This document shows, in pieces, positions 5,037-60,019 of a DNA stretch of 64,000 nt. The DNA is from Levilactobacillus yonginensis (GTDB taxonomy: Bacteria > Bacillota > Bacilli > Lactobacillales > Lactobacillaceae), in assembly GCF_003946265.1 (NCBI RefSeq), contig NZ_RHNO01000003.1, positions 62,001 to 126,000 on the forward strand, given 5' to 3'. Under the pieces are notes generated by a model. That model saw only the letters and a list, made by a program, of their open reading frames with translations, did no database searches and was not told the origin of the DNA. Position 1 is the stretch's first letter; each line of letters starts with the position of its first letter. Both the position numbers and the translations under genes were made by a program.

Positions 5037-5216
5037 CCACCTGCGGCTGTCAGAGATTCCGCCTGCTGTGGGGAACGCCTACGGCCTGAAAACCGGTCCT
5101 TCGACTCGGTTTGAAGCCTGGAAAAACCACCAGTCTCCAAACACGTCCCACGCTGTAAGCCGAAAATCGGCTAACACCGTCGACACAGCTGGCTCCACCG
5201 CTGACCACCTCCGGTT
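5037..5216 (-). repeat. Structured intergenic repeat R1 (long type, reverse orientation)
   Basis: Read on the minus strand it opens CCGGAGG and closes CCGCAGG. It carries the junction GCTGTGTCGA ... CCCCACAGC. It has arm P2 (GTGTTAGCCGA/TCGGCTTACAGC, a TTA/TTA pairing), arm P3 (GTTTGGAGACTGG/CCAGGCTTCAAAC with the shared A-G mismatch) and a degenerate P4 (GGACC...GGCC). The outer stem is only partly preserved. Confidence 0.8.
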
Positions 5217-5295
5217 AAACGGGTTCCTGGGAATTAAGCTAGCTCAAATGCATGAATGACAGAACTTACTCAATATTACTGGCGCGCCACTAGGT

Positions 5296-5467
5296 AGCCG
5301 AGAGTGAGCCAAATTTGCACTCAGCCGTGGGATTTTTAAGTGATTTTCTTGAAAATGGCGACTTGAAGACGTGTTTTGCGGCTTCAAGCGAGGGGCAAGA
5401 CCGCCCTTTGGCTTGTCCCGTCCTTCCCACCGCGTTCCAGTCCAAATTTGGCGAACGGTAAGGCGGC
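5296..5467 (+). repeat. Structured intergenic repeat R2 (GCCGAGAG type with P3 and P4)
   Basis: Opens AGCCGAGAG and closes CGGTAAGGCGG. The outer stem GCCAAATTTG pairs with CAAATTTGGC. Arm P3 is CTTGAAGACG/CGGCTTCAAG and arm P4 is GGGCAAGACC/GGCTTGTCC. It ends about 20 bp from the luxS stop. Its last 117 bases recur at 16157-16274 with about six differences. Confidence 0.85.
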
Positions 5468-5487
5468 AATTTTTAAATTTAAATTCG

Positions 5488-5961
5488 TTAGATGACTTCG
5501 CGTTTGAATGGATCCTTAGAAATCCCCTTGTCGAGAATATCCTTGCACCATTCCTGAGCGGAAAACAGACTGTGGTCGCGGTAGTTTCCACAACTGTATT
5601 TGTCAGTCCCCTGAACGTCTTTCCATTCAGTGTCAAAGGCAATCCGGTGAAGGGCCACCTTCAAAGCTTTAGCAACTTCTTCAGTGGATTGTTCACCCCA
5701 AGTAATCAGGTGGAAGCCGGTCCGGCAACCGAATGGCGAACAATCAATAACGCCAGACATTTCGTCGCGGAGGTACCCCGCCAAGAGATGTTCAATCGTA
5801 TGTAACCCGGCTGTTGGAATTGCGTTTTGGTTCGGTTGAACCAATCGTAAATCAAAGTTAGAGATAACGTCGCCTTTATTCCCGGTCTCGCGAGTAATCA
5901 ACCGAACGTAAGGTGCTTTAACAGCTGTGTGATCCAAAGTGAAACTTTCGACTTTTGCCAT
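5488..5961 (-). CDS. luxS: S-ribosylhomocysteine lyase (autoinducer-2 synthase)
   Basis: 157 residues, the standard LuxS length. It splits S-ribosylhomocysteine into homocysteine and DPD, the AI-2 precursor, in the cytosolic activated methyl cycle. The metal site is complete: H54-T-I-E57-H58 and the later C124 ([10 protein letters not shown]). The catalytic Cys of PFGCRTG is C79. Start ATG 5959-5961 follows GGGAG. The gene stands alone between copies of the structured repeat (R1 and R2 downstream, R3 upstream). No SAM-related riboswitch is visible in the leader. Confidence 0.98.
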
Positions 5962-6032
5962 TATGTGCCAACTCCCTTTTAATTTATCTGTACTTTGCTT
6001 GCAACCCTAATATGTGATGAGCGGCCTGTGTC

Positions 6033-6182
6033 AGCCGAGAGGGCGGGAAAAATAGGCTCAGCCGTGGCACTGCCTTAGCACGGTGACTTGCCGTGGTTAG
6101 GCAGAACCGAGTTTCGAGACCGCTCTTTGGCTCGAAATCGCGTTCACAGCGTTCCAGCCTATTTTTTCCGCCCGGTAAGGCG
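6033..6182 (+). repeat. Structured intergenic repeat R3 (GCCGAGAG type)
   Basis: The 18-bp outer stem opens GGGCGGGAAAAATAGGCT and pairs with one wobble near the 3' end. Arm P2 is CTGCCTTAGCACGG/CCGTGGTTAGGCAG. Arm P4 is TTTCGAGACC/GGCTCGAAA. It closes CCCGGTAAGGCG. It is nearly identical to R6 (23009-23160) except in the distal part of P2. Confidence 0.88.
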
Positions 6183-6398
6183 CAAATCCAACTCCTTAAG
6201 AAATTGCAGACACGTGTACTTCCTTACTGTAACCAAATTATTAAAAAATTGCCATTATTTTCTCTGAACGTTAGGTTTCCTTTCTGAATAGATGACAGAT
6301 CTGCTAAGAAACCGTAAAAACCGATGGCTCGCACCGCCACTCTAGCTATGAGTGGGTATACTAGATTGCGGATTAAGAGAGTAAGGGGAGGAATCATC

Positions 6399-7394
6399 AT
6401 GCAAAATACACCATTACCACCACGCCGAGAGAGCTTTGCCCCGCGTCGGCATCATTTACGCCACTGGCTCATTGCACTGTGTAGTCTACTGGCGATTGGC
6501 GGTGGCGTCTACGGCTGGCGTGCTTGGCATGCAGCTCAGCAGACCTTTTCCGCCACCTATCACGCCGTCGGCAAACCCAATGACACCACCATTACCAGCG
6601 GTAAGCCGTTTGCCGTACTCCTCTTGGGAACCGACACGGGCGCCCTTGGCCGTCACGATGTTGGCCGCACAGATACCATGATTGTTGCCACCATCAATCC
6701 CCAAAAACAGACGGCTAAATTAACGAGCATCCCCCGTGACACGCTGGTCAACATCTGGGGGAGCCAACAGGACGAGGAAAAAATCAACGCGGCTTACCCA
6801 CTATATGGTGCCCACACTACCATCAAAACGGTGGAGCACCTGGTAAACGTCCCCATTCCCTATTACGTGCTTCTCAACATGGGCGGCCTTAAGAAAATGA
6901 TCAACGCCGTGGGTGGCGTCACGGTCGACCCCCTCCTGACTTTTCACTACCAACAGGCTAACGTGACTAAGGGCGTTAAGATTCATTTGAACGGCGCCAG
7001 CGCCTTGGCCTACTCCCGCATGCGCGACCAAGACCCCCAAGGTGACTACGGCCGGCAAGCACGGCAACGCCAAATCATCAAAGCTTTAGTTCTAAAGGAA
7101 GCTAGCATCGGGTCCTTGCCGCGCTACCAATCCGTCCTGGACTCGCTGACCAACAACCTCCAGACCAACTTGACCTTCCAAGACCTCGTCTGGCTACGCG
7201 CCAAGGATGGCCACACCAGCCGCCACATTCAATCGCAAACACTACAGGGGCAACCAGCGACCATCAACGGTATCGATTACCAAATTGCCCCTCAGGCTGA
7301 GATCGACAAAGTCTCTACCAGCCTGCGGCAGGCCTTGAACCTATCAGACAATTCTAGCTTTCAAACAGATGCGTTGGACCCGGTTGGGTTTTAA
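6399..7394 (+). CDS. LytR-CpsA-Psr (LCP) family wall-polymer ligase
   Basis: 331 residues from ATG 6399, preceded by GGGGAGG. LCP enzymes transfer teichoic acid or polysaccharide from undecaprenyl pyrophosphate to peptidoglycan outside the membrane. Residues 19-42 are a single membrane anchor after a basic N-terminus. The LCP core follows: VLLLGTDTG, GRTDTMIVATINP, LTSIPRDTLVNI, INAAYPLYGA, INAVGGVTVD, LNGASALAYSRMRDQDPQGDYGRQARQRQIIKAL. The arginines and aspartates that bind pyrophosphate are all present. A short Ser/Asp tail ends DPVGF. Single-gene unit with a terminator 70 bp downstream. Confidence 0.95.
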   Translation: MQNTPLPPRRESFAPRRHHLRHWLIALCSLLAIGGGVYGWRAWHAAQQTFSATYHAVGKPNDTTITSGKPFAVLLLGTDTGALGRHDVGRTDTMIVATINPQKQTAKLTSIPRDTLVNIWGSQQDEEKINAAYPLYGAHTTIKTVEHLVNVPIPYYVLLNMGGLKKMINAVGGVTVDPLLTFHYQQANVTKGVKIHLNGASALAYSRMRDQDPQGDYGRQARQRQIIKALVLKEASIGSLPRYQSVLDSLTNNLQTNLTFQDLVWLRAKDGHTSRHIQSQTLQGQPATINGIDYQIAPQAEIDKVSTSLRQALNLSDNSSFQTDALDPVGF

Positions 7395-7460
7395 GGCCAA
7401 TCGGCGGGCGTTATTTGTCAGCTGACGTCCGTTTAAGCATTCTAAATTTAGGATAAATAA

Positions 7461-7494
7461 AAGGGACCTGGAAAAAATTCCAGATCCCTTTTGC
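7461..7494. terminator. Rho-independent terminator, bidirectional
   Basis: AAGGGACCTGG pairs with CCAGATCCCTT around an A-rich loop. It sits between the convergent LCP gene and the membrane protein gene. Confidence 0.85.
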
Positions 7495-7533
7495 GTAGTT
7501 AACTTAAGAAACACGATTAGCTGACCAGGATTC

Positions 7534-8124
7534 CTATGACTGGTCCTGACCTTGCTCATTTTGCCGAGCAATCCAGATGTGCCAACCAATCACTAAGACG
7601 CTGACATCCCCGAGAATCGTCCCCAACGCAATCAACCAGCTACCGGCTGAGGTGACCATCAGACTAGATGTCAGTGGGATTCGGGCTAATAGAGCTAGCA
7701 ACGTCGTAATCCACAGGCTCCCCAGAATCGCCGGGAACCAGGAATTAGCGTGCCGTCGCTGATGCCACCAAGTCAATCCAGTTACGATCACCGCAAATAA
7801 CAGTAGTGCGATACTCCCGCCAACACGGGTCAAGTAGACCAATCCCATAGCCGGGACGGTGCGGGCTGCAATCCACATTGCCACCAACAGGCCAATAATA
7901 ATGACCAACCAGCCAATGATACTGCCCCGGGCGGATGCGCGTTGCGTCAACCACAGGCCCAAGGCCATGGCAATCACGAACAGACCATACTGCACGGCCA
8001 CTAACAAGAGTTGAAACGGCACTGCTGGCAAAATCACACTCGGTAAAATGGTTCCTAACGTAAAAATCAACAGTGGCACCAAGAGATCCCAGCTCCACCA
8101 TTGGGGCTTCGTTTGTTTGGTCAC
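7534..8124 (-). CDS. Six-helix integral membrane protein, unknown
   Basis: 196 residues from GTG 8122-8124, preferred because GAAGGGAG lies about 9 bases upstream; the frame continues to a TTG with no ribosome site. Six hydrophobic segments are visible at roughly residues 18-37, 42-62, 70-90, 95-118, 130-148 and 158-182. The C-terminus is short and polar. No family motif is recognised. It is downstream of the fluC pair on the same strand with an 80-bp gap, so co-transcription is possible but unproven. Confidence 0.75.
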   Translation of the reverse strand: MTKQTKPQWWSWDLLVPLLIFTLGTILPSVILPAVPFQLLLVAVQYGLFVIAMALGLWLTQRASARGSIIGWLVIIIGLLVAMWIAARTVPAMGLVYLTRVGGSIALLLFAVIVTGLTWWHQRRHANSWFPAILGSLWITTLLALLARIPLTSSLMVTSAGSWLIALGTILGDVSVLVIGWHIWIARQNEQGQDQS

Positions 8125-8202
8125 AACGCTTGCTCCCTTCTTTTTCTTCAATGTGTTCAATGATAAAGAAGTTCCAGAGAAAATACCACTGATTTATCGT
8201 GA

Positions 8203-8562
8203 TCAGCCGTGGATAAGGCCCCACCAGAAGCCCGCCGCGGCCAATAGAACTCCGCCTAAGACACTCAACAGTATGTAACCCAGCACTGCGCCAAAACGCC
8301 GCTGATCGGCCAGCATCACAACTTCATGGCTAAAGGTCGAGAAAGTCGTGAATCCACCGAGAATTCCCGTCCCCAATAAAATGGCCAGAAGATTGCTAAC
8401 CTGCAAGCCGGTCAAACCACCTAATAGCAGGCATCCCACCCAGTTGATAGTTAGGGTGGCCACCGGCCAATGATTACCGGACCAGCGTTGGACCAGCCGA
8501 GTTGTCCCGTAGCGGCCCAGAGCACCGAGCATGGCACCTAACCCTGCCAGTGCCGCCATCAT
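8203..8562 (-). CDS. fluC2: Fluoride ion channel subunit FluC/CrcB
   Basis: 119 residues and four hydrophobic segments, the usual CrcB length. It exports fluoride by passive flow through a dual-topology dimer. Family signatures: GAMLGALGRYGTTRL near the N-terminus, the central NWVGCLLLGG, and GGFTTFSTFSHEV, which lines the pore and binds the bridging sodium. ATG 8560-8562 overlaps the TGA of the upstream fluC1 (four-base ATGA overlap). Gram-positive bacteria often carry two such genes, which may form a heterodimer. Confidence 0.95.
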   Translation of the reverse strand: MMAALAGLGAMLGALGRYGTTRLVQRWSGNHWPVATLTINWVGCLLLGGLTGLQVSNLLAILLGTGILGGFTTFSTFSHEVVMLADQRRFGAVLGYILLSVLGGVLLAAAGFWWGLIHG

Positions 8563-8951
8563 CCTTCAACCACCGGGAACGTCCCCCATTTACGGGCGCT
8601 CCACAGGCCGAGCCAGCTACAGAGCAAGCCACCCACCAACGTCACCGCCAAGTAACCCGCCGCGAGACCCCACCGTTGTTGCTGCAATAAGCGAACCACA
8701 TCGACACTGAACGTCGAGAACGTCGTGAAGGCACCGACACCGCCAACACCCAAACCAACGGTAATGGCACTCGGCCAGTGGGCCGTCACCCGTTTGGCAT
8801 GCGACAACCAGGCTAACCCGCCACTCCCTATCAAGTTGACCAAGACAGTGGCCCACGGAAATCCGGTAGGCGTCGGTATTCCCTGACCAATCAGGTATCG
8901 GCCACTGCCACCTAAGAACGCAAAAAATGCAATTGAAACAATGTTTGCCAA
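8559..8951 (-). CDS. fluC1: Fluoride ion channel subunit FluC/CrcB
   Basis: 130 residues. Starts at TTG 8949-8951, supported by AAGGAGG eight bases upstream. CrcB motifs: FLGGSGRYLIGQ, TVLVNLIGSGGLAWL and GAFTTFSTFSVDVV. It is first of the two overlapping channel genes. I looked in the 75-base leader for a fluoride (crcB) riboswitch and did not see one. The leader instead carries the terminator of the preceding csoR gene. Confidence 0.95.
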   Translation of the reverse strand: MANIVSIAFFAFLGGSGRYLIGQGIPTPTGFPWATVLVNLIGSGGLAWLSHAKRVTAHWPSAITVGLGVGGVGAFTTFSTFSVDVVRLLQQQRWGLAAGYLAVTLVGGLLCSWLGLWSARKWGTFPVVEG

Positions 8952-8987
8952 GCCGTTGGCCTCCTTGTAAATGCTTCGCCCATTATA

Positions 8988-9013
8988 GCAAAAAAGGCCG
9001 CCCCACGGCGACC
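8988..9013 (-). terminator. Rho-independent terminator of the trxA-csoR operon
   Basis: On the minus strand GGTCGCC pairs with GGCGGCC (one wobble) across a GTGG loop, followed by six T's. Confidence 0.85.
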
Positions 9014-9025
9014 CTCCTTCACGTT

Positions 9026-9289
9026 CTAATGCGTTTTAACCACGAGGTCTAAAGCATCTTGGAGCGCAGCCTGTTGATTATCACTGAGCTCTTCCTCAAC
9101 GATACACTGCTTAACATTCTCTGCAACGACCACACCCATCATGCGTTCCACCCCGGAACGAACGGCAGCCAATTGCGTCAGAATATCCTGACACTCCCGC
9201 CCCTCGTCGACCATCTTCAGAATACCCTGGAGTTGGCCATCGGCGCGCCGCAAGCGATTCTTCAATTGGTTAGAGGTTGTTTGTACCAT
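9026..9289 (-). CDS. CsoR/FrmR-family transcriptional repressor, CstR-like
   Basis: 87-residue all-helical DUF156 repressor. Two conserved cysteines are C33 (GRECQDIL) and C62 (VKQCIVEE). Copper-sensing CsoR has a His three residues before the second Cys; here that position is Asn (N58). A thiol-only Cys-Cys pair of this kind fits the persulfide/sulfur-sensing CstR branch better than copper sensing. Its ATG overlaps the trxA stop by one base (TAATG). An inverted repeat of the CsoR/CstR operator type lies upstream of trxA at 9654-9669, so autoregulation is likely. Partner choice (thioredoxin) also points to thiol chemistry. Confidence 0.9.
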   Translation of the reverse strand: MVQTTSNQLKNRLRRADGQLQGILKMVDEGRECQDILTQLAAVRSGVERMMGVVVAENVKQCIVEEELSDNQQAALQDALDLVVKTH

Positions 9290-9615
9290 TAGGCTTTCAC
9301 CTCAGTCAGCTTCTCATCGAGATATTTCTTTAAAGCGGCCTTAGGATGGAAACCCACCACTTTTTCAGTTGGCATACCATTCTTGAAGACGACCATGGAA
9401 GGAATACTCATGATTCCCAACGACTGAGCCAATTCCTGGTTCTGGTCGACATCCAAAGAAGCAAACTTGACCTGGTCACCATATTCCTGGTCTAAAGCTT
9501 CCAAGACCGGTGTCTGCATCTTACATGGACCACACCAATCGGCCCAAAAGTCGACAACGGTTACCGCGGTATCGTCACCCACGTGTTCAAAATCCTTACT
9601 CGTAATTGCTTGCAT
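9289..9615 (-). CDS. trxA: Thioredoxin
   Basis: 108 residues with the canonical active site W27-C28-G-P-C31, the cis-Pro segment MSIPSMVVFKNG and the FWADWC lead-in. It reduces protein disulfides in the cytosol using thioredoxin reductase. It is first in an operon with the CsoR/CstR-like repressor (one-base overlap), downstream of a palindromic operator. This linkage suggests a stress-induced thioredoxin and not the housekeeping copy. Start ATG 9613-9615 has a GGGGGA site about 7 bases upstream. Confidence 0.97.
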   Translation of the reverse strand: MQAITSKDFEHVGDDTAVTVVDFWADWCGPCKMQTPVLEALDQEYGDQVKFASLDVDQNQELAQSLGIMSIPSMVVFKNGMPTEKVVGFHPKAALKKYLDEKLTEVKA

Positions 9616-9653
9616 GAAAGAATCCCCCTTATGTTTTTATCAGTGTAGCCAGT

Positions 9654-9669
9654 ATACCCCAAGGGGTAT
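9654..9669 (-). promoter_or_regulatory. CsoR/CstR-type operator upstream of trxA
   Basis: Inverted repeat ATACCCC-AA-GGGGTAT, 7-bp perfect arms with a 2-bp centre. This is the form known for CsoR/CstR operators (ATACCCC..GGGGTAT). It lies about 40 bases before the trxA start, where it would overlap the promoter. Confidence 0.85.
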
Positions 9670-9797
9670 TAAAAAGCGAGACTTTTGTTTTCAGCCAACC
9701 TGCTAACCGAATTCGACGAACAGTTACGAGCAACCCGACCACAAAAAAACGAGGTGCGACCTTCGTCTCACCCCGTTTCCGGTTCATTGCGTTTCGT

Positions 9798-11204
9798 TTA
9801 ATTTTCAGGAAGTTCAGGGTCTGGATCTATGCCCGCGGTCAACCGTGGATTGTTATGCCCCCGCTTAGTTTCCTTCTCAACGGCTTGTTGGGCCACAATG
9901 TTAAGGAAGTTAAACGGATCATCAAAGTTCGGATTGAACAGCATGTCCACAAAGGCCAAGTCATCAATCGTGTTCCGATTTTGGATCGCGATTGAAATAG
10001 CGTTGGCTGATTGCGCAACTTCATGCTTACTGAGGAGCTGAGCCCCCAGAATCCGACGATTCTTCCGATTGTAGACCAAGTTGATGGTCAAGTCATCGGT
10101 AGATGGCATGTAGCTTGGCCGCCAAGTCCCTTGGAAGGTGACCTGATCAGCGTCAAAGCCAGCTGCCAGTGCATGGTCGATGGTCAACCCCGTTGAGGCC
10201 AACGTCCGTCCGAAGATCTGCATTGCTGAAGTGGCTTGCGTCCCCATGTATTTCTGAATGTTACCAAAGACGTTGATACCAGCCAGCATCCCTTGCCGAA
10301 CCGCGTTAGTAGCCAATGGTGTGTACGCTGGCTTACCCGTTGGGTTGAAGTTAACGACACTGGCGTCCCCGCAAGCAAAGATGTCTGGGTTAGACGTCTG
10401 AACGTAGTCGTTGATGATGATGGCACCGTGCTTGTCCATATCCACTTGGCCCCGTAAGAGCTCAGTGTTCGGAACAAATCCGGTACATACAACGGCTAAG
10501 TCAGCCGTGTACTCACCGTTCGTCGTTTCAATGACTAATTCGCCATCGTCATTTCCAGTGAAGGACGTTACCCGCCGGTTCAACAGCACTTCTACGCCGT
10601 TATCCTGCAGTAAATGAACGATGTGATCAGACAATTCGCTATCAACATAATGGTTCAAAATGATGTCCCGTGATTGAATCAGTTGAACATCATGACCGGT
10701 CCGAGCATAACTTTCAGCCAGTTCCGTACCAATATAACCAGCACCAATGATGGCAATTCGCTTGTTACCTTTAGCTGCGGCATCAATTGCCACGGCTTGT
10801 TCGTAGTTCTTGCAAAGCATAACCTTATCTTCATCAATCCCAAAGATTGGTGGCACGGTCACAGTGGAGCCAGTTGCCATAATTAATTTATCGTAAGTAT
10901 CAGTGGTCAAGTCGCCAGAATCCATATCAACGACATCGAGTGACTTATTTTCTGAATCGATCTTAACGACGTTGTGCCGCGTTAAAACCTTATCACCCGC
11001 TTCCGCTAGTTGTTCTGGTGAAGAATAAAACATGTCCTCCAAGTGCTTGACTTGTCCGTCTAAGAACAGAGAAATACCACAAGACAAGAACGAAACGTTC
11101 GTGTGTCGTTCGTAAATGGTCACATCTGTATCTGGATGGTCACGCAAAATTTGTAGCGCGGCGTTAGTGCCAGCGTGTGTACTCCCAACAATGATGACTT
11201 TCAT
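9798..11204 (-). CDS. FAD-dependent NADH oxidase / CoA-disulfide reductase family
   Basis: 468 residues from ATG 11202-11204, with GGAGG eight bases upstream. Two Rossmann motifs: VIIVGSTHAGTNAAL at the N-terminus for FAD and IAIIGAGYIGTELAE near residue 155 for NADH. The redox Cys lies in VSFLSCGISLFLDG (about residue 42). The FAD-closing motif NPDIFACGDASVV and a C-terminal dimerisation domain follow. The architecture fits the water-forming NADH oxidases common in lactobacilli, which remove oxygen and regenerate NAD+. CoA-disulfide reductase activity cannot be excluded. The Asp/Glu/Pro-rich tail is a little longer than usual. Monocistronic with a long upstream spacer. Confidence 0.88.
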   Translation of the reverse strand: MKVIIVGSTHAGTNAALQILRDHPDTDVTIYERHTNVSFLSCGISLFLDGQVKHLEDMFYSSPEQLAEAGDKVLTRHNVVKIDSENKSLDVVDMDSGDLTTDTYDKLIMATGSTVTVPPIFGIDEDKVMLCKNYEQAVAIDAAAKGNKRIAIIGAGYIGTELAESYARTGHDVQLIQSRDIILNHYVDSELSDHIVHLLQDNGVEVLLNRRVTSFTGNDDGELVIETTNGEYTADLAVVCTGFVPNTELLRGQVDMDKHGAIIINDYVQTSNPDIFACGDASVVNFNPTGKPAYTPLATNAVRQGMLAGINVFGNIQKYMGTQATSAMQIFGRTLASTGLTIDHALAAGFDADQVTFQGTWRPSYMPSTDDLTINLVYNRKNRRILGAQLLSKHEVAQSANAISIAIQNRNTIDDLAFVDMLFNPNFDDPFNFLNIVAQQAVEKETKRGHNNPRLTAGIDPDPELPEN

Positions 11205-11660
11205 GTTTACCCTCCTACGTGAAAAACGATTCTGCATTAAGTCTACTTGAAAGTTAGCGAAAGATAAATGACTTCGTCTTGGAAAAACGATGATTTAGCC
11301 CCAAAACCTCACACATCGTCAAGATTGACGGAATTATGTGCTTTTTGCACACTTATTTCCCGCTAAAATTCACATAATCGTTACATAAATGATTGCTTAA
11401 ACAACCGTCATAATCACGTTGAGAGCATTTCCTGACTTTTTTAAAATCTGCTTAGTTTGTTCAGTTACTCAGCTAATGTCGACACCATAATCCGTATACT
11501 CCGATGAAAGACTAACGGTTAATCGGCAACGGGTTAAACTGTCAGAAAGTCCGCTACCATTAGGAATACCGGGGGATTAGGCTTTTCCCTATCACCTGCT
11601 AACCTAATTGGGACAGTCAGCTTACTTAAGGTAGGTGGTCACTAGCCACTTTTTAGAAAT
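11205..11660. other. Long non-coding spacer upstream of the NADH oxidase gene
   Basis: It holds the nox promoter region and no open frame that looks real. Some short dyads are present, but none matches an operator I recognise. The adjacent 11674-11857 stretch carries a candidate small RNA. Confidence 0.4.
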
Positions 11661-11673
11661 AGTCACATTTTGG

Positions 11674-11702
11674 TTGCAGTGTTTTTCAGAACTGACTATG
11701 AT
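11674..11702 (+). promoter_or_regulatory. Promoter of candidate small RNA 1
   Basis: TTGCAG, 17-base spacer, TATGAT. The predicted start is near 11708. No open reading frame with a ribosome site follows before the terminator. Confidence 0.7.
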
Positions 11703-11707
11703 AGCGA

Positions 11708-11857
11708 TAGTTAGTTCGTGATACGTTCTGACCTTAAGCACTGTGATAGATGATAGGAATCACTGTCTATAGATGCACTCCCCCCAAAACAAGTGATTTA
11801 TTAACAGATTCCTAATATTGGCCCTAAGTAATCCGCATGTTACTTAGGGTTTTTTTG
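11708..11857 (+). ncRNA. Candidate trans-acting small RNA 1 (C-rich loop)
   Basis: About 150 nt with its own promoter and a strong terminator. TAGGAATC (11754-11761) pairs perfectly with GATTCCTA (11807-11814). Between them lies an unpaired GCACTCCCCCCAAAAC. C-rich loops of this kind are how Gram-positive small RNAs such as RsaE/RoxS engage G-rich ribosome sites. A sister with the same layout lies at 13103-13243. The loop has 12 contiguous complementary bases in the ndh leader (22596-22607). No coding potential with a plausible ribosome site was found. Existence and targets are inferred. Confidence 0.6.
11822..11857 (+). terminator. Terminator of small RNA 1
   Basis: CCCTAAGTAA and TTACTTAGGG (10-bp perfect arms), then seven T's on the plus strand only. 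The minus strand has no T-run after the stem, so this does not belong to dedA. Confidence 0.88.
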
Positions 11858-14540: not shown

Positions 14541-14542
14541 GG

Positions 14543-16156: not shown

Positions 16157-16274
16157 TTGAAAATGGCGACTTGAAGCCGTGCTTTATGGCTTCAAGCGAG
16201 GGGCAAGACCGCCCTTTGGCTTGTCCCGTCCTCCCCACCGCGTTCCAGTCCAAATTTGGCGAACGGTCAGGCGG
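16157..16274 (+). repeat. Structured intergenic repeat R4 (5'-truncated copy of R2)
   Basis: Matches R2 positions 5350-5466 with about six differences over 117 bases. It lacks the 5' arm of the outer stem and P2. P3 (CTTGAAG.../...CTTCAAG) and P4 (GGGCAAGACC/GGCTTGTCC) are complete. It lies between the mntH terminator and the promoter at 16307. Confidence 0.88.
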
Positions 16275-16306
16275 TATTTTCCCACTATTCTCAACGTGTA
16301 AGCGTT

Positions 16307-22761: not shown

Positions 22762-22917
22762 GCCGCCTTACCGGGTGAGCTGGTAGGTGCTGGAACGCCA
22801 TGGGTACGGTTTCGAGCCAAAGACCGGTCTCAAAAGCCGACCTTTCACTAATCTGAGAAGACCACTCAGCTAAGAGAAATTTCATGGCTGAGCACCTACC
22901 AGCTCACCCTCTCGGCT
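22762..22917 (-). repeat. Structured intergenic repeat R5 (GCCGAGAG type, reverse orientation)
   Basis: On the minus strand it opens AGCCGAGAG. The outer stem is 19 bp and perfect: GGGTGAGCTGGTAGGTGCT with its complement, quite unlike R3/R6 in sequence. P2 keeps TTA/TTA. P4 is TTTTGAGACC/GGCTCGAAA. It closes CCGGTAAGGCGGC. Confidence 0.87.
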
Positions 22918-23008
22918 AATGTAGATACGCCAATGCAACAATCATATGTTTTAAAAACTTAGCAAACTAACTTGAATAACGAACCTCCATTAATAGACAA
23001 GCAGGCTC

Positions 23009-23160
23009 AGCCGAGAGGGCGGGAAAAATAGGCTCAGCCGTGGCACTGCCTTAGCGAAGTGTTTTTCTTCGGTTAGGCAGAACCGAGTTTCGAGACCGCT
23101 CTTTGGCTCGAAATCGTGTTCACAGCGTTCCAGCCTATTTTTCCCGCCCGGTAAGGCGCC
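23009..23160 (+). repeat. Structured intergenic repeat R6 (GCCGAGAG type)
   Basis: Nearly the same as R3. The outer stem GGGCGGGAAAAATAGGCT is perfect over 18 bp. P2 is CTGCCTTAGCGAAG/CTTCGGTTAGGCAG: relative to R3 both sides of the distal stem have changed together. P4 is the same as in R3. Oriented head to head with R5. Confidence 0.9.
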
Positions 23161-24044: not shown

Positions 24045-24151
24045 ATAGGCTAGGTAAGTGCTACATAGCACCCTAATATAAGCCTCAAGCACTACCGCCT
24101 AACCAAGGACTACGACCTGTTGCCAATCATTCTATTTAACTTGTCATCGTA

Positions 24152-24336
24152 GCCGCCGAATGCCAGGGTGGGACGGCTGTGTCGACGGTGTTGGCCAGCG
24201 TTTTTTAGCTGGCCTACAGCGTGGGACGAGCTTAGAGACTCTCGTGAACTTCGGGAGGCTCTAAGTCGAGGTGCAAGACCACTTCTCAGGCTTGCACCGT
24301 TCCCCACAGCAGGCCCGCCCTGGCAGTCGGCGGCGG
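24152..24336 (+). repeat. Structured intergenic repeat R7 (long type, complete)
   Basis: Outer stem GCCAGGGTGGG/CCCGCCCTGGC plus GCCGCCGA/TCGGCGGC. Junction GGCTGTGTCGA ... CCCCACAGC. P2 TTGGCCAGC/GCTGGCCTA. P3 CTTAGAGACTCTCG/CGGGAGGCTCTAAG with the shared A-G mismatch. P4 GTGCAAGACC/GGCTTGCAC. It lies between convergent genes. Confidence 0.9.
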
Positions 24337-24458
24337 CCGCTCGCAAACTTAAGCGCCAAACTAAAAAATCAGCAACGGTCCCGCCGCTGCTGGTCAGATA
24401 GCTTCTATTCTGGTTGGTTGGTATCAAGCTGACTAGCTGGCATCGTTGGCAATGTCGC

Positions 24459-31813: not shown

Positions 31814-32057
31814 GTTAATCGCGCTCCTTAGGTCAGGTGTCCTGGCAGTGAACCGTTCGTCGAGCACCCCAAAATTATTGATTGGTGTCATCATAGTCCC
31901 CTTCAACTGAGAATGCCAGTAATTATGCTTACTTTTTGTTAGTGAATGTTTTCACGGATGAAAGCGGTTAACTCCATTCGGGTAGCGGTCACTGCGGGAG
32001 CCATCTATGACCTGAAACCTTACCCAAGCACCCCTAACCATAATGCGTGTTCAGAAC

Positions 32058-32097
32058 GCAATCAGGGTCAAGGACAAAAGTCCTTGACCCTGATTGC
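32058..32097. other. Perfect 18-bp hairpin without T-run
   Basis: Arms 32058-32075 and 32080-32097 are exact complements around an AAAA loop. It lies between the corA stop and the pox promoter. It could act as a bidirectional transcript end or mRNA stabiliser. Confidence 0.7.
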
Positions 32098-32142
32098 GGT
32101 CCAAACCTATATAGCTGAAACGTACGACATCAATCCACGTAT

Positions 32143-38361: not shown

Positions 38362-38620
38362 GGTACCGGCCTTCTTTTCTCAAAATTAAGTTTGCACGAT
38401 CAGTGTAACACGTAATTTTTAAAAGTACAGGTTAAATACTTTCAACCCGTAGACTTGAACTAACAGAGCGACTATTTTATCCAGCTCTGGCTACACTGAT
38501 TTGATCTCATTGCTCATAATAAATAACATTGAAAGATACACCATCTAGGCTTCACTAACATCGATAGGACCCAACTGCTGACACAGTCACGCCAGTTCTA
38601 TAGCCACCGACCAACGACGC
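38362..38620. other. Non-coding spacer
   Basis: Promoter region of the FAD-oxidase gene on the minus strand. No gene or structured element before repeat R8. Confidence 0.4.
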
Positions 38621-38621
38621 C

Positions 38622-38716
38622 ACTGGCTGGCAGGGATGGGGCCGGCCGTGTCGAGGAGTAAGACCGCCTTTTGGCTTGCTCCGGTCCCCACAGCAGGCGC
38701 CGTTCCTGCCAGCCAG
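38622..38716 (+). repeat. Structured intergenic repeat R8 (short form: only P4 kept)
   Basis: Outer stem CTGGCTGGCAGG... with ...CCTGCCAGCCAG, 17 bp including wobbles. The junction GTGTCGAGG runs straight into P4 (GAGTAAGACC/GGCTTGCTC) and GGTCCCCACAGC. Arms P2 and P3 are absent without disturbing the rest. Confidence 0.87.
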
Positions 38717-38743
38717 AGGCGGCCCATTACATAAAAAAGGACA

Positions 38744-53312: not shown

Positions 53313-53575
53313 GCGTTTAGTCATCACCATGATTGCCCGCCGTCATTTGGACTTCAAAAAACCTCCTAGCTCGTCCGTCATTCAAGAATTTTTGAATTCC
53401 ACGCATCGCTATGGTCGCAACCACTTGCGAGCGCATACAAATAAGCACTAAGCGTTGACCTTCCAGGAATATGGGGGTATGTTAGTATGGTTGCCATTTC
53501 GATTAAGTCACGATTAGTTTGCGTTACTACGGGTAATCTCACTAATCAATTCATTCAATAAGGAGTTGAACCACT

Positions 53576-54808: not shown

Positions 54809-54820
54809 TTACACGCACAA

Positions 54821-54887
54821 AATAGACGCTGTCGCAGAACGGCTTGATCTCATCAAGTCCTTCCGCGACAACGCCTATTTATTTTTG
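54821..54887 (+). terminator. MFS gene terminator (long imperfect stem)
   Basis: AATAGACGCTGTCGC pairs with GCGACAACGCCTATT with inner CTTGAT/ATCAAG pairing, then ATTTTT. Confidence 0.85.
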
Positions 54888-54906
54888 TTCAAAATTCGTA
54901 TGGCCC

Positions 54907-55086
54907 GCACCAGCAGGTCAGGAATTTCGCTAGCTGTGGGGACCGGGGAAAGCCACAGAACGGTCTTTCCCCTCGACTTGAAGCCGCGCAGATCACGCGT
55001 CTCCAAGCTCGTCCCATGGCCTAAGCTGACAAAACAGTCAGCCAAGGCCATCGACACAGCTAGCTACATCCCTGACCTTCTGGTGC
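54907..55086 (-). repeat. Structured intergenic repeat R9 (long type, reverse orientation, complete)
   Basis: On the minus strand the outer stem begins GCACCAG and pairs over 19 positions with one mismatch (AGGTCAGG/CCTGACCT inside). P2 ATGGCCTTGGCTGA/TCAGCTTAGGCCAT; P3 CTTGGAGACGCG/CGCGGCTTCAAG with the A-G mismatch; P4 GGGGAAAGACC/GGCTTTCCCC; then GGTCCCCACAGC. Confidence 0.9.
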
Positions 55087-55282
55087 TACACTGTCCAACT
55101 TTACAAATAAATTAAGTAGTCGTGAAGCTGATAATATTTATCATAATTACTAAAACTCACTTGAGTATGCTAATTCAATGCTGAAATTTCGACAAATTTT
55201 TCCTACAAATAATCAGGTAACATTACCCAACTCCAATTAGCATTATCTAATCACTGCAGTTGCCAGCACCCCACTGCCATAA

Positions 55283-55464
55283 CCGGAGGTCGCCAGGAAT
55301 GGTGGCAGCTGTGTCGGTGTTCTTAGTCCGGTGAACTGTCGGACTTAGAACACGGGACGATCTTGGAAACTCGGTGGTCTTCCGAGGTTTCAAGTCGAGG
55401 AGTAAGACCGCTTCTCAGGCTTACTCCGGTCCCCACAGCAGACGCCATTACTGGCGGCCGCAGG
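55283..55464 (+). repeat. Structured intergenic repeat R10 (long type, complete)
   Basis: Opens CCGGAGG, closes CCGCAGG. Outer stem CGCCAGGAATGG/CCATTACTGGCG. P2 GTGTTCTTAGTCCG/CGGACTTAGAACAC. P3 CTTGGAAACTCGG/CCGAGGTTTCAAG. P4 GAGTAAGACC/GGCTTACTC. Head to head with R9 in the same spacer between convergent genes. Confidence 0.9.
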
Positions 55465-55482
55465 TGACAATTAGTGGCGTGC

Positions 55483-55965
55483 TTACCCCGCGAACTTAGT
55501 TAGGGGCACGTCAGCATCGTCGCTCCCAAAAACCTTAACGGGAGCCGGATTAACTGCCAAGAGTGTGTTGATTTCGCCAAAACCATCCACGAGGTCAAAG
55601 TCCAGGCCAGCCGTCATCAGTTGCCGCCGGGCATCCCTAATTTGGCCAGGCAATTCAACGATGTCGTCGGTCCGACCGACCAACAACCGGTGCGTACCCG
55701 CGGCCTGTGCCGCAGTAATCAGCGTCGTCACCGTCTGGGTCAATTTGATAGTTGGCACCAAGGCCACCACCATGTCTTGGTCAAGCATGGCGGCCGTTAA
55801 CCCACCCTCGTCCAGCGTCTCACCGGTCAGAGCCATGACGGATTGCGGCAAGTCGACCGCACTCGGTGTGTACACGGTTAAACTCACGTGATTATTTTGA
55901 CTGAGTTGGCGGACAAAGGTTTGGCTGGTCGTGTCTAACGCCCCAGCAAGCAGGATTCGTTTCAA
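55483..55965 (-). CDS. Short NAD(P)-binding protein, NmrA-like
   Basis: 160 residues: MKRILLAGALDTTSQTFVRQL as a Rossmann-like start, then VALVPTIKLTQTVTTLITAAQAAG and RLLVGRTDDIVELPG. It keeps only the N-terminal two-thirds of a normal NmrA/SDR fold, so it may be a compact regulator or sensor. The Gly loop (GALDTTS) lacks the usual second and third Gly, so nucleotide binding is uncertain. A 22-bp perfect palindrome lies about 97 bases upstream. Confidence 0.7.
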   Translation of the reverse strand: MKRILLAGALDTTSQTFVRQLSQNNHVSLTVYTPSAVDLPQSVMALTGETLDEGGLTAAMLDQDMVVALVPTIKLTQTVTTLITAAQAAGTHRLLVGRTDDIVELPGQIRDARRQLMTAGLDFDLVDGFGEINTLLAVNPAPVKVFGSDDADVPLTKFAG

Positions 55966-56061
55966 GGTCGTAACTCCCTTTCGTTTTGATGATGTTTCTT
56001 AGTATAAGGGGTTAGACTTAGTCGAAGGCAAGCCCTATTTTTAAAATAATTTCCGCTAAGA

Positions 56062-56083
56062 TTAATAAGAAATTTCTTATTAA
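56062..56083. promoter_or_regulatory. Perfect 22-bp palindrome between divergent genes
   Basis: Arms TTAATAAGAAA and TTTCTTATTAA meet with no spacer. Located about 97 bases before the NmrA-like gene and about 290 before opuCA. Good candidate operator for a dimeric repressor not encoded nearby. Confidence 0.65.
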
Positions 56084-56200
56084 AAACTCATTTTTCTGAG
56101 CGAGTTTTGGAGGCGGTTCATTGCTTACTCCTATACGGGATAAGGGCTTACGTGAATTCGTTCACACTCACATATCATCAACAGTAGCAATGGTTATCTT

Positions 56201-56229
56201 TTGGATTGCGGGGGTAATTCGTGTACAAT
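56201..56229 (+). promoter_or_regulatory. opuC promoter
   Basis: TTGGAT, 17-base spacer, TACAAT. The leader of about 140 nt contains a hairpin CGCCGA/TCGGCG near 56321-56341. Confidence 0.65.
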
Positions 56230-56373
56230 GAGTACTAATCGAGAGTTGAGAATTCAAATACGACCGGTCTCCAGGTTGCTTCGTGACTAACGCGTGCTGC
56301 CGGCACACCGATCGTTATTTTTACGCCGAAGAACTGTCGGCGAACGTGACACCATCACACAGGAGGTTAATCT

Positions 56374-57579
56374 ATGCTACTTTCAATGGAACATCTACGT
56401 AAAGAATATCCTAACGGTAAAATAGCCGTCGACGACTTCAACTTAGAGGTCGACCGCGGCGAATTCATTGCCTTTATCGGAACGTCTGGCTCAGGCAAGA
56501 CCACGACCATGCGGATGATCAATCGCATGCTCAATCAAACTTCCGGTACCATCAAGATCAACGGTAAGGATATTTCTAAGATGGATCCAGTCAAGCTCCG
56601 GCGGTCAATTGGCTACGTGATTCAAAACACCGGGCTGATGCCCCACATGACCATTCAAGAAAACATTGAAATGGTTCCGAAACTACTTGGCTGGTCCAAG
56701 GAAAAGCGCGAAGAACAAGCGCACAAAATGATTGCCCTGGCACAGTTGCCAGATGAAATGCTGCAACGCTACCCCGGAGAGCTCTCCGGTGGGCAGCAGC
56801 AACGGATTGGGGTCGTTCGCGCCCTAGCCGCCGATCAAGAACTCATTTTAATGGATGAACCCTTTGGGGCCTTGGACCCCATCACGCGTGAATCTCTCCA
56901 GGATTTGGTCAAGCATTTACAAAAAGACCTCGGCAAGACCTTCATCTTCGTCACCCATGATATGGATGAAGCGCTGAACCTCTCAACTAAGGTCGTTATC
57001 ATGAGCCAGGGTAAGCAGGTCCAAGTCGACACACCCGAAAACATCTTACGCCACCCCGCCAACGAGTTCGTCACAAACTTGATTGGGGAGGAACGCCTGA
57101 TCAGAGCGCAACCAAACATTCTGACGGTTAGTCAAATCATGTTAAAGAACCCCGCCGCCATCACTCCTGACAAGACGTTGGAAGACGCCATTGAACAAAT
57201 GCATGAACGGCGAGTTGATACGCTGTTAGTTACCGACAAAACCGGTGTTCTGCAAGGCTTCGTTGACTTGGATGATATCAACCGTATCGCGGATGCCCAT
57301 ACGCCAGTCAGCCGGTTCACACAAGACCGGGTCTTCTACGTTAAGGCCAATGCGTTGATTGGTGATACCGTCGACCGCATCCTGAAAAAAGGTGTGAAGA
57401 ACGTGCCCGTCGTCGACGAAGACAAACGCTTAGTCGGTATCGTCACGCGGACCGCCCTCGTGGATATCGTCTACGATGCCTTACATGGTGCACCCGACGC
57501 CAATGAGAAACCTGCTTCACCAATTAATGCTGATATCCATGCTGCCGCAACCCGTGAAGGAGGCGAAATGCCACAATGA
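56374..57579 (+). CDS. opuCA: Glycine betaine/carnitine/choline ABC transporter ATPase
   Basis: 401 residues. ABC domain 1-240: Walker [11 protein letters not shown]-loop [13 protein letters not shown], signature [15 protein letters not shown], Walker [21 protein letters not shown]. Tandem CBS domains at about 255-375 probably gate activity by ionic strength. It is first of a four-gene operon for osmoprotectant uptake. AGGAGG before ATG 56374. The stop overlaps the opuCB start. Confidence 0.95.
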
Positions 57580-58202
57580 TGCACTTTTTAGCAACTTATG
57601 GGACTCAACTGCTCAGTAAGACGGGGCAACACCTGTTGATCTCCGCAGCTGCCCTGGGGCTAGGTGTCATCGTGGCCGTTCCGCTGGGAATCTTACTCAC
57701 CCGCATGAAACACGGTGCTAACCTTGTAATGTCACTGGCCGGGGTGCTACAAACCATCCCCGCCATGGCCCTGTTAGCGATGATGATTCCCATCTTTGGT
57801 ATCGGCTCCACGCCCGCCATTGTGGCCCTCTTCATTTACTCGTTGTTACCGATTCTCCGCAACACTTATTTAGGCATGCAAGGGGTCTCACCGACCGTCC
57901 GCGACGCTGCCAAAGGGATGGGAATGACTTGGTGGCAAATGATGACGCGGGCTGAGATTCCGTTGGCTGCGCCCGTCATCATGTCTGGTATTCGGCTCTC
58001 CGCCACCTACGTGATTGCTTGGGCGACGTTAGCTTCCTACATTGGTGCTGGTGGCCTCGGGGACTTCATTTTCAACGGGTTGAACCTTTACCGGTCCGAC
58101 CTGATCCTCGGCGGCTCGATTCCCGTTATCCTGTTGGCGCTCCTGGTCGACTACCTGTTGGGTAAAGTGGAACGTGCCGTCATGCCTAAGCCATTACGAT
58201 AG
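57576..58202 (+). CDS. opuCB: Betaine/carnitine ABC transporter permease
   Basis: 208 residues and about five helices. The binding-protein-dependent permease signature is [38 protein letters not shown] (EAA loop). Starts ATG 57576, overlapping the opuCA stop by four bases. Forms the channel with OpuCD. Confidence 0.95.
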
Positions 58203-58212
58203 GAGGTCCGTT

Positions 58213-59151
58213 ATGCGAAAACATTTACGCAAATGGCTCGCCGGACTTCTGGTAGTCATTGCAATATTACCGTTAAGTGGGTGCAGCTTCAGCTTTCCTG
58301 GGCTATCCGGTTCGGGCGATAACACCATCCGCATCGCCTCTCAGAACACGACTGAACAACAGATCATGGCCTACATGATTCAAGGCATGATCACCCACTA
58401 CACCAAATTAGATTCAACCATCATCAACAACCTGGGGTCTGGTAACGTGAGTTTCAACGCCCTGAAGAATAAACAAGCTGACATCTCGTCCATTCGGTTC
58501 TACGGGACCGACCTGACGACCATCCTGAACGAAAAATTCGAACGGGACCCCGCCAAGGTCAAGACGACCGTCAGGGATGAATTTCAGAGCCGTTACCACA
58601 TGACCTACCTTAAAAACTATGGGTTCTCAGATACGTACGCCTGGATGGTCAAGCAGAGTTACGCCAAGAAGCATAACTTACAGACGGTCAGTGACCTGCA
58701 AAAGCTTTCGCCCAATATGACCGTTGGGATCGACCAAATCTGGCAAAACCGTCAAGGAGACGGTTACCCCGCCTTCCAAAAGATGTACGGTTTCGGCTTT
58801 GGCAAAGTTTTGCCGATGCAGACCGGACTGCTCTACGACGCACTGTCTGCCGATAAAATGAACGCCATCTTGGGTTATTCCACCGACGGCCGGGTCTCCA
58901 GCTATCATTTGAAATTGCTGAAGGACGACAAGAACTTCTTCCCACCTTACGATGCCGCACCGGTTGCGACCGACGCCATCCTGAAGGCCCATCCGGAATT
59001 GAAGCCCGTCTTAAACCGGTTGGCCGGCAAGATTTCTTTGAAGACCATGCAGACCTTGAACTACAAGGTGGACGACCAACTCGAAGAACCACAGACCGTG
59101 GCCAACGACTTCTTGAAGGCGCACCACTACTTTGAAGGGGGGAACGACTAG
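58213..59151 (+). CDS. opuCC: Betaine/carnitine-binding lipoprotein
   Basis: 312 residues from ATG 58213 (AGGAGG upstream). Lipoprotein signal with lipobox L-S-G-C (about residue 26). The OpuAC-like binding fold has NTIRIASQNTTEQQIMAYMIQGMI at the N-terminus and SADKMNAILGYSTDGRV, a usual segment of the choline/betaine type. Lipid-anchored outside, it hands substrate to OpuCB/OpuCD. Exact ligand cannot be read from sequence. Confidence 0.94.
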   Translation: MRKHLRKWLAGLLVVIAILPLSGCSFSFPGLSGSGDNTIRIASQNTTEQQIMAYMIQGMITHYTKLDSTIINNLGSGNVSFNALKNKQADISSIRFYGTDLTTILNEKFERDPAKVKTTVRDEFQSRYHMTYLKNYGFSDTYAWMVKQSYAKKHNLQTVSDLQKLSPNMTVGIDQIWQNRQGDGYPAFQKMYGFGFGKVLPMQTGLLYDALSADKMNAILGYSTDGRVSSYHLKLLKDDKNFFPPYDAAPVATDAILKAHPELKPVLNRLAGKISLKTMQTLNYKVDDQLEEPQTVANDFLKAHHYFEGGND

Positions 59152-59152
59152 T

Positions 59153-59815
59153 ATGAAAGACATGGATCTGTTCAATCAGTTAATTTACTATTTTAGTCAT
59201 AACGGGATGTACGTCCTCAGTCAATTCAACCAGACGTTCCTAGTTTCCATCTATGGCGTGCTTCTGGGCGCCATCGTGGGGATTCCGCTGGGTATTTGGA
59301 TTTCCCAATACCGCCGGCTCTCACCAGTGATCATCGGGATTGCAAACGTGATTCAGACGGTGCCCTCACTGGCGATGCTGTCGATTCTGATGTTAGGATT
59401 GGGACTCGGGGAAAATACGGTAATTGCGACCGTCTTCCTCTACTCCCTCCTGCCAATCATCAAGAACACCTATACTGGGATGCTCAGTGTCGACGGCGAC
59501 GTACTGGACGCTGGGAAAGGGATGGGGATGACGCGGTTCCAGGTCATGAAGACCATTCGGATTCCGCTGTCACTCTCCGTCATCATTGCTGGGATTCGTA
59601 ACGCGCTGGTTATCGGAATTGGGATTACCGTTATCGGCTCGTTCATCGGTTCTGGTGGGCTCGGGGACATCATCGTCCGCGGGACCAACGCAACGAATGG
59701 TGGGGCCATCATCTTGGCCGGTGCATTGCCAACCGCTTTAATGGCAATCATCACCGACCTGGTACTGTCCTTCATCGAAAAACGCTTAACGCCGAAGACT
59801 TCTTCGGAGGGTTAA
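59153..59815 (+). CDS. opuCD: Betaine/carnitine ABC transporter permease
   Basis: 220 residues from ATG 59153, one base after the opuCC stop, with a GGGGGG ribosome site. EAA loop GMGMTRFQVMKTIRIPLSLSVIIAGIRNALVIGIGITVIGSFIGSGGLGDII. Last gene of the operon. A terminator follows at 59829. Confidence 0.95.
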   Translation: MKDMDLFNQLIYYFSHNGMYVLSQFNQTFLVSIYGVLLGAIVGIPLGIWISQYRRLSPVIIGIANVIQTVPSLAMLSILMLGLGLGENTVIATVFLYSLLPIIKNTYTGMLSVDGDVLDAGKGMGMTRFQVMKTIRIPLSLSVIIAGIRNALVIGIGITVIGSFIGSGGLGDIIVRGTNATNGGAIILAGALPTALMAIITDLVLSFIEKRLTPKTSSEG

Positions 59816-59828
59816 TTTTAATTTGTTT

Positions 59829-59866
59829 GACGTCAGTATGCCGCTTGGGTATGCTGGCGTTTTTTG
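59829..59866 (+). terminator. opuC operon terminator
   Basis: GTCAGTATGCC pairs with GGGTATGCTGGC using G-U wobbles, then T6. Confidence 0.85.
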
Positions 59867-59915
59867 TTTGCTCCTAAATTGTTAGTCTTAGATCAAAGTG
59901 CAGGTAGTGGGCAGT

Positions 59916-60019
59916 TGGCCGCCTGTGGCTGCCAGGTAGTACGCTGTGGGGCAACCCATGTTCTAAGCGGCAAAACCGCTAAGAACATCGACACTGCGCA
60001 CCACCTGGCTTCCTCCGGC
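59916..60019 (-). repeat. Structured intergenic repeat R11 (short form: only P2 kept)
   Basis: On the minus strand the outer stem GCCAGGTGGTGCGC pairs with GCGTACTACCTGGC (two wobbles). GTGTCGA is followed by P2 (GTTCTTAGCGG/CCGCTTAGAAC) and then CCCCACAGC. P3 and P4 are absent, the reverse of what is lost in R8. Confidence 0.85.

What the first reader, a model, noticed from the sequence alone, without database searches (positions are those of the whole stretch)
5037..60019. A superfamily of at least 11 dispersed, highly structured intergenic repeats
Copies: 5037-5216(-), 5296-5467(+), 6033-6182(+), 16157-16274(+), 22762-22917(-), 23009-23160(+), 24152-24336(+), 38622-38716(+), 54907-55086(-), 55283-55464(+), 59916-60019(-). 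All lie between genes, in both orientations. Each folds into a long outer stem closing a junction with up to three arms (P2, P3, P4). Short motifs are shared (GTGTCGA, GGGACG, GTCGAGG, GGTCCCCACAGC, or GCCGAGAG and GGTAAGGCG ends), while the stems differ. I do not recognise it as a named RNA or mobile element. It could be a conserved non-coding RNA, an RNA-processing module or a hairpin-DNA element mobilised in trans.
Basis: partly seen in the sequence, partly recalled or inferred. Interest (0 to 1): 0.9.

Follow-up and report, generated by a model that had tools for sequence, protein, structure and literature searches.

The report
Folded repeats scattered at gene ends
Some lactic acid bacteria carry a few hundred copies of an undescribed, intricately folded, mobile-looking DNA repeat that sits mostly just behind genes in a fixed direction, which gives a new system for studying how short folded sequences spread through genomes and what they do there.

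Summary
All 11 copies are real; one covariance model finds all 11 and no other place in the window. By motif counts corrected for controls the 2.69-Mb genome carries about 175 A-type and 64 B-type copies. The fold covaries strongly: 64 of 68 pairs show double changes over 149 copies. Rfam has no match at gathering score. Copies occur in 48 of 201 family genomes, 10 of 40 genera; plasmid and phage records gave no match.

New anatomy: the elements have a polarity. The 3' end lies within 160 bp of a gene stop in 57 of 99 A copies, the 5' end in 6 of 99; close neighbours are mostly divergent, 24 of 31. One gene end is occupied in 17 of 33 related genomes by members of different subfamilies, and a hairpin arm can be swapped whole. 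One subset is a MITE with 7-bp target duplications; solo copies show none.

Best reading: an undescribed family of non-autonomous mobile structured repeats that works like REP/REPIN sequences but is far larger and has no demonstrated RAYT. A selected 3'-end RNA role remains open.

The parts
4971..4984 (+). terminal inverted repeat CTAAAGGTTGAAAG, left end of the A3-B MITE (right repeat missing in this copy)
   Evidence: other copies of this MITE have both ends and 7-bp duplications
4971..5477 (.). A3-B composite (MITE), absent at this place in relative G243; end coordinate approximate
5036..5218 (-). A3-type element, full fold
   Evidence: R1 E 3.2e-39
5294..5467 (+). B-type element; 3' end 21 bp from the stop of a convergent gene (luxS by eye)
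   Evidence: R1 E 2.2e-14; context
6031..6184 (+). B-type element
   Evidence: R1 E 5.3e-13; orthologue in G243
16157..16280 (+). B-type element, 5' part missing
   Evidence: R1 partial match 16165-16231, E 1.5e-6; repeat D2
22762..22919 (-). B-type element
   Evidence: R1 E 2.3e-16
23007..23160 (+). B-type element, divergent partner of the previous one; a stump in G243
   Evidence: R1 E 2.7e-13
24149..24337 (+). A1-type element, full fold; a stump in G243
   Evidence: R1 E 8.6e-42
38616..38723 (+). A-type element, short form without P2 and P3; full in G243
   Evidence: R1 E 7.4e-13
54904..55089 (-). A1-type element behind the stop (54808) of a convergent gene; a non-alignable A element stands here in G242 and G243
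   Evidence: R1 E 9e-40
55279..55468 (+). A1-type element, divergent partner of the previous one, 15 bp from the stop of a convergent gene; orthologues in G242 and G243
   Evidence: R1 E 2.4e-50
59918..60022 (-). A-type element, short form (P2 only), 103 bp behind the stop of the opuD-like gene; full-arm form in G242
   Evidence: R1 E 6.4e-17

Best explanation
A large family of non-autonomous mobile elements whose recognised feature is a folded single strand: an outer stem closed near its base by a symmetric 5'-GNA/5'-GNA purine loop, two linked three-way junctions, and three arms with a fixed T.T mismatch (P2), an A.G mismatch (P3) and a bulged A (P4). Copies are mobilised in trans by an enzyme not identified here, land directionally behind stop codons (3' end of the element toward the gene, in some cases ahead of the gene's terminator) and afterwards lose arms or are deleted between short end repeats. 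One lineage (A3-B) also moves as a MITE with terminal repeats and 7-bp target duplications. Shown: one family, copy number, covariation, polarity, repeated occupation of one site, arm exchange in single cases, stumps, the MITE. Inferred: trans mobilisation of the solo copies, the folded strand as the recognised form, and that the preference for gene 3' ends is targeting and not selection.
For: About 240 dispersed copies in 10 of 40 genera, patchily, 48 of 201 genomes. Covariation with fixed non-canonical positions. G.T outnumbers A.C 65 to 18 on the unfitted alignment and 450 to 131 on the fitted one, so the annotated strand folds. Polarity 57 against 6 of 99 A copies, neighbours '-+' 24 of 31. 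Same gene end occupied by different subfamilies in the same direction in 17 of 33 genomes. MITE subset: duplication of 7 bp or more in 10 of 17 copies (7 exact, 3 with one mismatch) against 5% in shuffled flanks; clean filled/empty pair G240/G234 by eye.
Against: No mobilising enzyme found; a Y1 transposase is present in only 21 of 48 carriers and in 37 of 153 non-carriers, and none in this genome has an element nearby. Solo copies show no target duplication and only one clean filled/empty pair was seen, which could be a deletion between AAT repeats. Most differences between close species look like deletions that leave stumps. Paired positions of orthologous copies change less often than unpaired ones (44 of 1118 against 57 of 484), which hints at selection in place.
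Confidence: 0.5

Rival explanations
1. A selected cis-acting RNA module of gene ends. Transcription that runs from the intergenic centre toward a gene's 3' end (convergent read-through or antisense) makes the element's annotated strand, whose fold halts or degrades that transcript and so guards the gene; on the gene's own mRNA the reverse complement forms a 3' UTR barrier.
For: Fixed polarity toward stops; repeated occupation of the opuD-like gene end with changing sequence but constant direction; slower change at paired positions of orthologues; more G.T than A.C; 0 of 42 genes with an element within 45 bp of the stop have an intrinsic terminator in the first 160 nt, against 123 of 334 controls.
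Against: 16 of 33 genomes do without an R1-detectable element at that gene end; copies are often reduced to stumps; of 40 changed pairs in orthologues 16 are broken; no transcript data are held; in tandem gene pairs the needed transcript would have to be antisense.
Confidence: 0.27
2. Ordinary MITEs and their debris: the fold is only the long terminal region of transposons such as A3-B, solo copies are leftovers, and covariation arises because whole hairpin arms are exchanged by recombination.
For: The A3-B subset is a MITE. Whole P2 arm replaced with the rest nearly identical: G011/G237 1.00 outside P2 and 0.53 inside, G193/G007 0.97 and 0.44.
Against: Solo A copies show no terminal repeat beyond the element and no duplication. 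Arm exchange was not seen in the 149-copy set for P2 (0 of 97 close pairs) or P4 (0 of 106). Fixed mismatches persist while stems change. Polarity is not expected of debris.
Confidence: 0.15
3. A multicopy family of stand-alone non-coding RNA genes, each with its own promoter in the centre of a divergent pair.
For: Structure and covariation resemble a functional RNA; divergent pairs with their 5' ends facing.
Against: Centres of A pairs look unrelated in sequence and differ in length; copies are lost or truncated between close species; promoters were not scanned for.
Confidence: 0.06

Closest known systems
GTAG-tagged REP sequences / REPINs mobilised by RAYT (PMC3733652: abstract and 12 of 30 matching passages seen)
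   Same: Over 100 extragenic copies per genome, close copies often in opposite orientation, preference for places downstream of coding regions and between convergent or tandem genes, GTAG-like 5' start in many A copies, no target duplication seen in solo copies.
   Different: 100-190 nt with two three-way junctions, not a 20-40 bp palindrome; no RAYT linked; a MITE subset with 7-bp duplications. That paper does not mention Lactobacillus or Firmicutes (word search).
MITEs with terminal inverted repeats (general kind)
   Same: The A3-B composite has 14-bp terminal repeats, no coding gene, many copies and 7-bp duplications.
   Different: Only this subset qualifies; the solo copies have neither feature.
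BOX and RUP repeats of Streptococcus pneumoniae (recalled; only listed as such in passages of PMC2267715)
   Same: Interspersed structured repeats of a Gram-positive coccus or rod, around 100-200 nt, intergenic.
   Different: No sequence or structure comparison was made here; polarity toward gene ends and the double junction are not features I recall for them.
Structured non-coding RNA families (Rfam)
   Same: Depth of covariation and fixed non-canonical positions.
   Different: No family at gathering score in the window. At E up to 5 four sub-threshold hits: a microRNA model on the minus strand of 38616-38722, a Tetrahymena snoRNA, NsiR1 and sR14.

Membership tests
GTAG REP / REPIN | small (20-40 bp) palindrome | tested here: not met
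   full copies are about 150-190 nt with two three-way junctions
GTAG REP / REPIN | GTAG tag at the 5' base | tested here: inconclusive
   first four element positions in 138 solo copies: G 0.42, T 0.64, A 0.91, G 0.86; A3, A2 and B differ
GTAG REP / REPIN | many extragenic copies, close copies inverted | tested here: met
   182 and 64 motif places; '-+' 24 of 31 close neighbours
GTAG REP / REPIN | associated RAYT (Y1) transposase gene | tested here: not met
   5 Y1 matches in this genome, no R1 match in their 5 loci; Y1 in 21 of 48 carriers and 37 of 153 non-carriers. RAYT-specific models were not run (one search failed)
MITE | terminal inverted repeats and target duplication, A3-B composite | tested here: met
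   CTAAAGGTTGAAAG ends; duplication of 7 bp or more in 10 of 17 copies against 5% shuffled
MITE | terminal inverted repeats and target duplication, solo A copies | tested here: not met
   best z 2.6 among some 600 boundary choices in 138 copies
MITE | autonomous parent element with the same ends | tested here: inconclusive
   105 end-like sites with up to 2 mismatches (control 32), about 100 listed; no facing pair 1-3 kb apart noticed among those; other genomes not searched
structured non-coding RNA | covarying secondary structure | tested here: met
structured non-coding RNA | transcription | not testable with these tools
   no expression data held
described Rfam family | score above a family's gathering threshold | tested here: not met
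   0 matches in the window
integron attC-like folded recombination sites | attC core sites and linked integrase | not tested
   considered only; no call made

The most novel reading that the evidence does not exclude
A new class of bacterial mobile element in which the thing recognised and moved is a folded single strand with two three-way junctions, inserted without target duplication behind stop codons in one direction by an unknown trans-acting enzyme, and evolving partly by exchange of whole hairpin arms as cassettes: in effect a bacterial counterpart of a SINE.
Probability: 0.2. Interest if true: 0.88.

Novelty: new variant of a known kind. Interest (0 to 1): 0.64.

Why it matters
A family this abundant (about one copy per 11 kb by motif count) and this structured, in ten genera of a family of food and probiotic bacteria, was not found described in Rfam or in the open-access searches made. 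Its polarity toward gene ends, the repeated occupation of one site by different subfamilies and the whole-arm exchange make it a tractable natural system for two open questions: how short non-autonomous repeats are mobilised and aimed in bacteria, and whether they become 3'-end regulators.

Tried and rejected
Rfam match: none at gathering score; at E up to 5 four hits, all far below their cut-offs. RAYT/HUH transposase as the mobiliser: weak, non-obligatory association. Spread by plasmid or phage: no match in 72,556 plasmid and 50,697 phage records; the A query was run on both, the composite on plasmids only; own or near-own records may be left out there. A divergent pair as one transposon: the centres of the 12 A pairs printed look unrelated and differ in length, so most pairs are two elements each facing a gene end; A3-B is a real unit. 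Conserved 5' UTR regulator: first thought for B copies, dropped because stops dominate for A; B counts are small (3' side: stop 6, start 6 of 19 in the same three sets). Target duplication for solo copies: not found. The element as an intrinsic terminator of the gene: 0 of 42 by a simple scan. Folding energy as a strand test: + more stable in 97% of 149 copies, by 12.3 kcal/mol on average, but shuffles of the first 60 give 10.2, so it was not used. Arm exchange as a general rule: 0 of 97 close pairs for P2, 0 of 106 for P4, 8 of 123 for P3 (the four printed all involve one copy with an enlarged P3, L198); it rests on two cases at one site. Literature: eight searches, several with capped lists, found no description; PMC2267715 gives one coding-region family for L. 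johnsonii (passages). Mostly open-access papers are held.
Full report
What is there. The 11 reported repeats are real and belong to one superfamily. Covariance model R1, built from 22 A-type copies of this genome (21 outside the window, one, 55279-55468, inside), finds all 11 window copies, B-type included, and no other place. Two motif counts size the family in the window's own genome (2,693,691 bases, 63 contigs): 182 places with GGTCCCCACAGC at up to 1 mismatch against 7 for the reversed pattern, and 64 B 3' ends against 0.

Host. G001, of the same genus as this genome, has a contig of 175,389 bases, the length of contig NZ_RHNZ01000007.1 of Levilactobacillus fuyuanensis; I infer from this that the window comes from a Levilactobacillus.

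The fold. As I read the 22-copy alignment: outer stem P1, interrupted near its base by a symmetric purine loop (GCC-GNA-GG / CC-GNA-GGC); a first three-way junction of P1, P2 and a short stem P5 (GGGAC/GTCCC); a second of P5, P3 and P4. P2 carries a recurring T.T mismatch, P3 an A.G mismatch, P4 a bulged A. On that alignment 92.3% of cells pair (77.9% shuffled), 47 of 68 pairs have double changes, and 222 cells do so against 72 shuffled. Over 149 copies, all that passed E <= 1e-22 in 80 chosen sources, it is 64 of 68 pairs and 1916 cells against 550; that alignment is fitted to the model. B-type copies alone: 26 non-redundant of 39, 35 pairs, 171 double-change cells against 49. G.T cells outnumber A.C cells 65 to 18 on the unfitted alignment and 450 to 131 on the fitted one, which points to the annotated strand as the one that folds.

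Distribution. R1 matches 23 of 24 genomes of the genus (at most 65 candidates scored per genome, so counts are lower bounds; G015 had 9, G021 none) and 0 of 16 genomes of other families in the order. In 201 genomes drawn from the family, 48 match, in 10 of 40 genera (stricter filters). A DNA pattern scan gave 37 stretches in Levilactobacillus parabrevis, fuyuanensis, tongjiangensis and hammesii, Lactiplantibacillus herbarum and mudanjiangensis, and an uncultured Lactobacillus MAG. No plasmid or phage record matched. No Rfam family matches at gathering score.

Polarity. For A copies found by a motif scan in three sets (21 in own contig C1 plus window, 24 in relatives G242/G243, 54 in the named loci; 99 in all) the 3' side lies within 160 bp of a gene stop in 57 and of a gene start in 18; the 5' side lies within 160 bp of a gene stop in 6. 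Neighbouring elements (A or B) less than 700 bp apart are '-+' 24 times, '+-' 2, '--' 4, '++' 1 in those sets. A fourth set (own search loci, 49 A) overlaps the first and gives 26 stops against 3. B copies in the three sets: 3' side stop 6, start 6, of 19. So most A elements read toward a gene end, and divergent pairs follow from this. Gene calls are simple ORF calls, and the motif scan misses some copies that R1 finds (compare, 39 elements).

Place in the transcript. Of 42 genes with an element within 45 bp behind the stop, tail to tail, none has an intrinsic terminator in the first 160 nt, against 123 of 334 control genes; 11 of 42 have one in the 170 nt after the element, against 29 of 334 controls at a similar distance. 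In part of the cases, then, the element seems to lie between stop codon and terminator.

Turnover. Compared with the nearest relatives, G242 (91-94% identical) and G243 (87-91%): the A3-B composite at 4971-5477 is absent in G243; 23007(+) and 24149(+) are stumps there; 59918(-) is short in own and G243 but has P3 and P4 in G242; 38616(+) is short in own but full in G243; at 54904(-) the relatives carry an A(-) element that does not align with it. Several other copies on C1 are stumps, absent or replaced in one relative. Stumps can join short direct repeats at the element ends, for example GCCGGA (G016 against G018 and G002). One clean filled/empty pair was found (own C1:240170 against G243), which could be insertion or deletion between AAT repeats; G242 has a truncated copy there.

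A gene end occupied again and again. Behind the opuD-like gene (59132-59815; name by eye, no family search) a tail-to-tail element matches R1 in 17 of 33 genus genomes examined, 18 to 103 bp after the stop; one search had found 35 genomes, two of which (G003, G006) I did not fetch. Of the 16 others, G240 and G234 show B-type ends by eye and G009 a stump. The occupants belong to different subfamilies: B in G001 and G014, A2 in G193 and G007, A3-like in G008 and G023, others A1-like (my reading). Mean identity within this site is 0.65, within a second site 0.67, between the two 0.62, and to elements elsewhere 0.61. Place and direction are kept while the occupant changes; recurrent insertion, conversion and fast divergence were not separated.

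Arm exchange. At this site G011 and G237 are identical outside P2 (1.00) and 0.53 alike inside it; G193 and G007 are 0.97 and 0.44 alike (14 close pairs among 325). By eye each foreign arm pairs with itself. In the 149-copy set there was no such case for P2 (0 of 97 close pairs) or P4 (0 of 106), and 8 of 123 for P3, the four printed all involving one odd copy. Arm exchange can create covariation without point-by-point compensation, which weakens covariation as proof of selection.

Constraint in place. In nine orthologous comparisons of six elements, 44 of 1118 paired positions differ against 57 of 484 unpaired; of 40 changed pairs 24 still pair and 16 do not. This hints at selection on single copies, from a small sample.

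How they move. The A3-B composite is a MITE: ends CTAAAGGTTGAAAG, 284-595 bp in the 17 copies listed, target duplication of 7 bp or more in 10 of the 17 (7 exact, 3 with one mismatch) against 5% in shuffled flanks, and a clean insertion in G240 against G234 by eye. Solo copies show no duplication signal in 138 copies. A Y1 HUH transposase, the enzyme type of REPs, is present in 21 of 48 carriers and 37 of 153 non-carriers (my cross-count), and the five Y1 loci of this genome hold no R1 match. The mobiliser of the solo copies is unknown.

Verdict. The family works like REP/REPIN sequences (abundance, inverted neighbours, preference for gene 3' ends, no duplication) but two defining features were tested and not met (small simple palindrome; linked Y1 transposase), so it is not filed as a REP. 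Part of it is a MITE. The best-supported account is a non-autonomous mobile structured repeat placed directionally behind stop codons; a selected role at gene ends is the main rival and could also be its later fate. No description was found in the eight literature searches made, of which I saw the listings and, of two papers, passages or the abstract.

Noticed in passing
window 63841-63917 and 32049-32106: Two other inverted repeats (arms of 33 and 27 nt, 91% and 89% complementary) that do not match the family; they look like terminators.
   Followed up: no
window 2434-3528 and 3614-4702: Two adjacent ORFs of 364 and 362 aa on the minus strand with similar sequences, apparently tandem paralogues with signal-like N-termini (by eye).
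   Followed up: no
G000 contigs C17, C18, C19, C29 and C36, bases 52-65: The same 14-mer CTTAAGGTTGACAG stands at the same distance from the start of five contigs, as if one repeated element broke the assembly there; a similar 14-mer lies just behind a partial Y1 transposase on C24.
   Followed up: no
L198:4467-4716: An A element with a much enlarged P3 arm (250 nt match), otherwise about 90% identical to copies in other loci.
   Followed up: no
L179:3057-3340 (G242) against C1:222011 of this genome: At the place of an A2 element in this genome, G242 carries a shortened A3-B MITE with both terminal repeats, so one site has hosted two kinds of element.
   Followed up: partly
G243 against the window, 57402-64000: Identity is 97.5% over this stretch but 87-91% over most of the rest of the window, as after recent recombination between species.
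   Followed up: no
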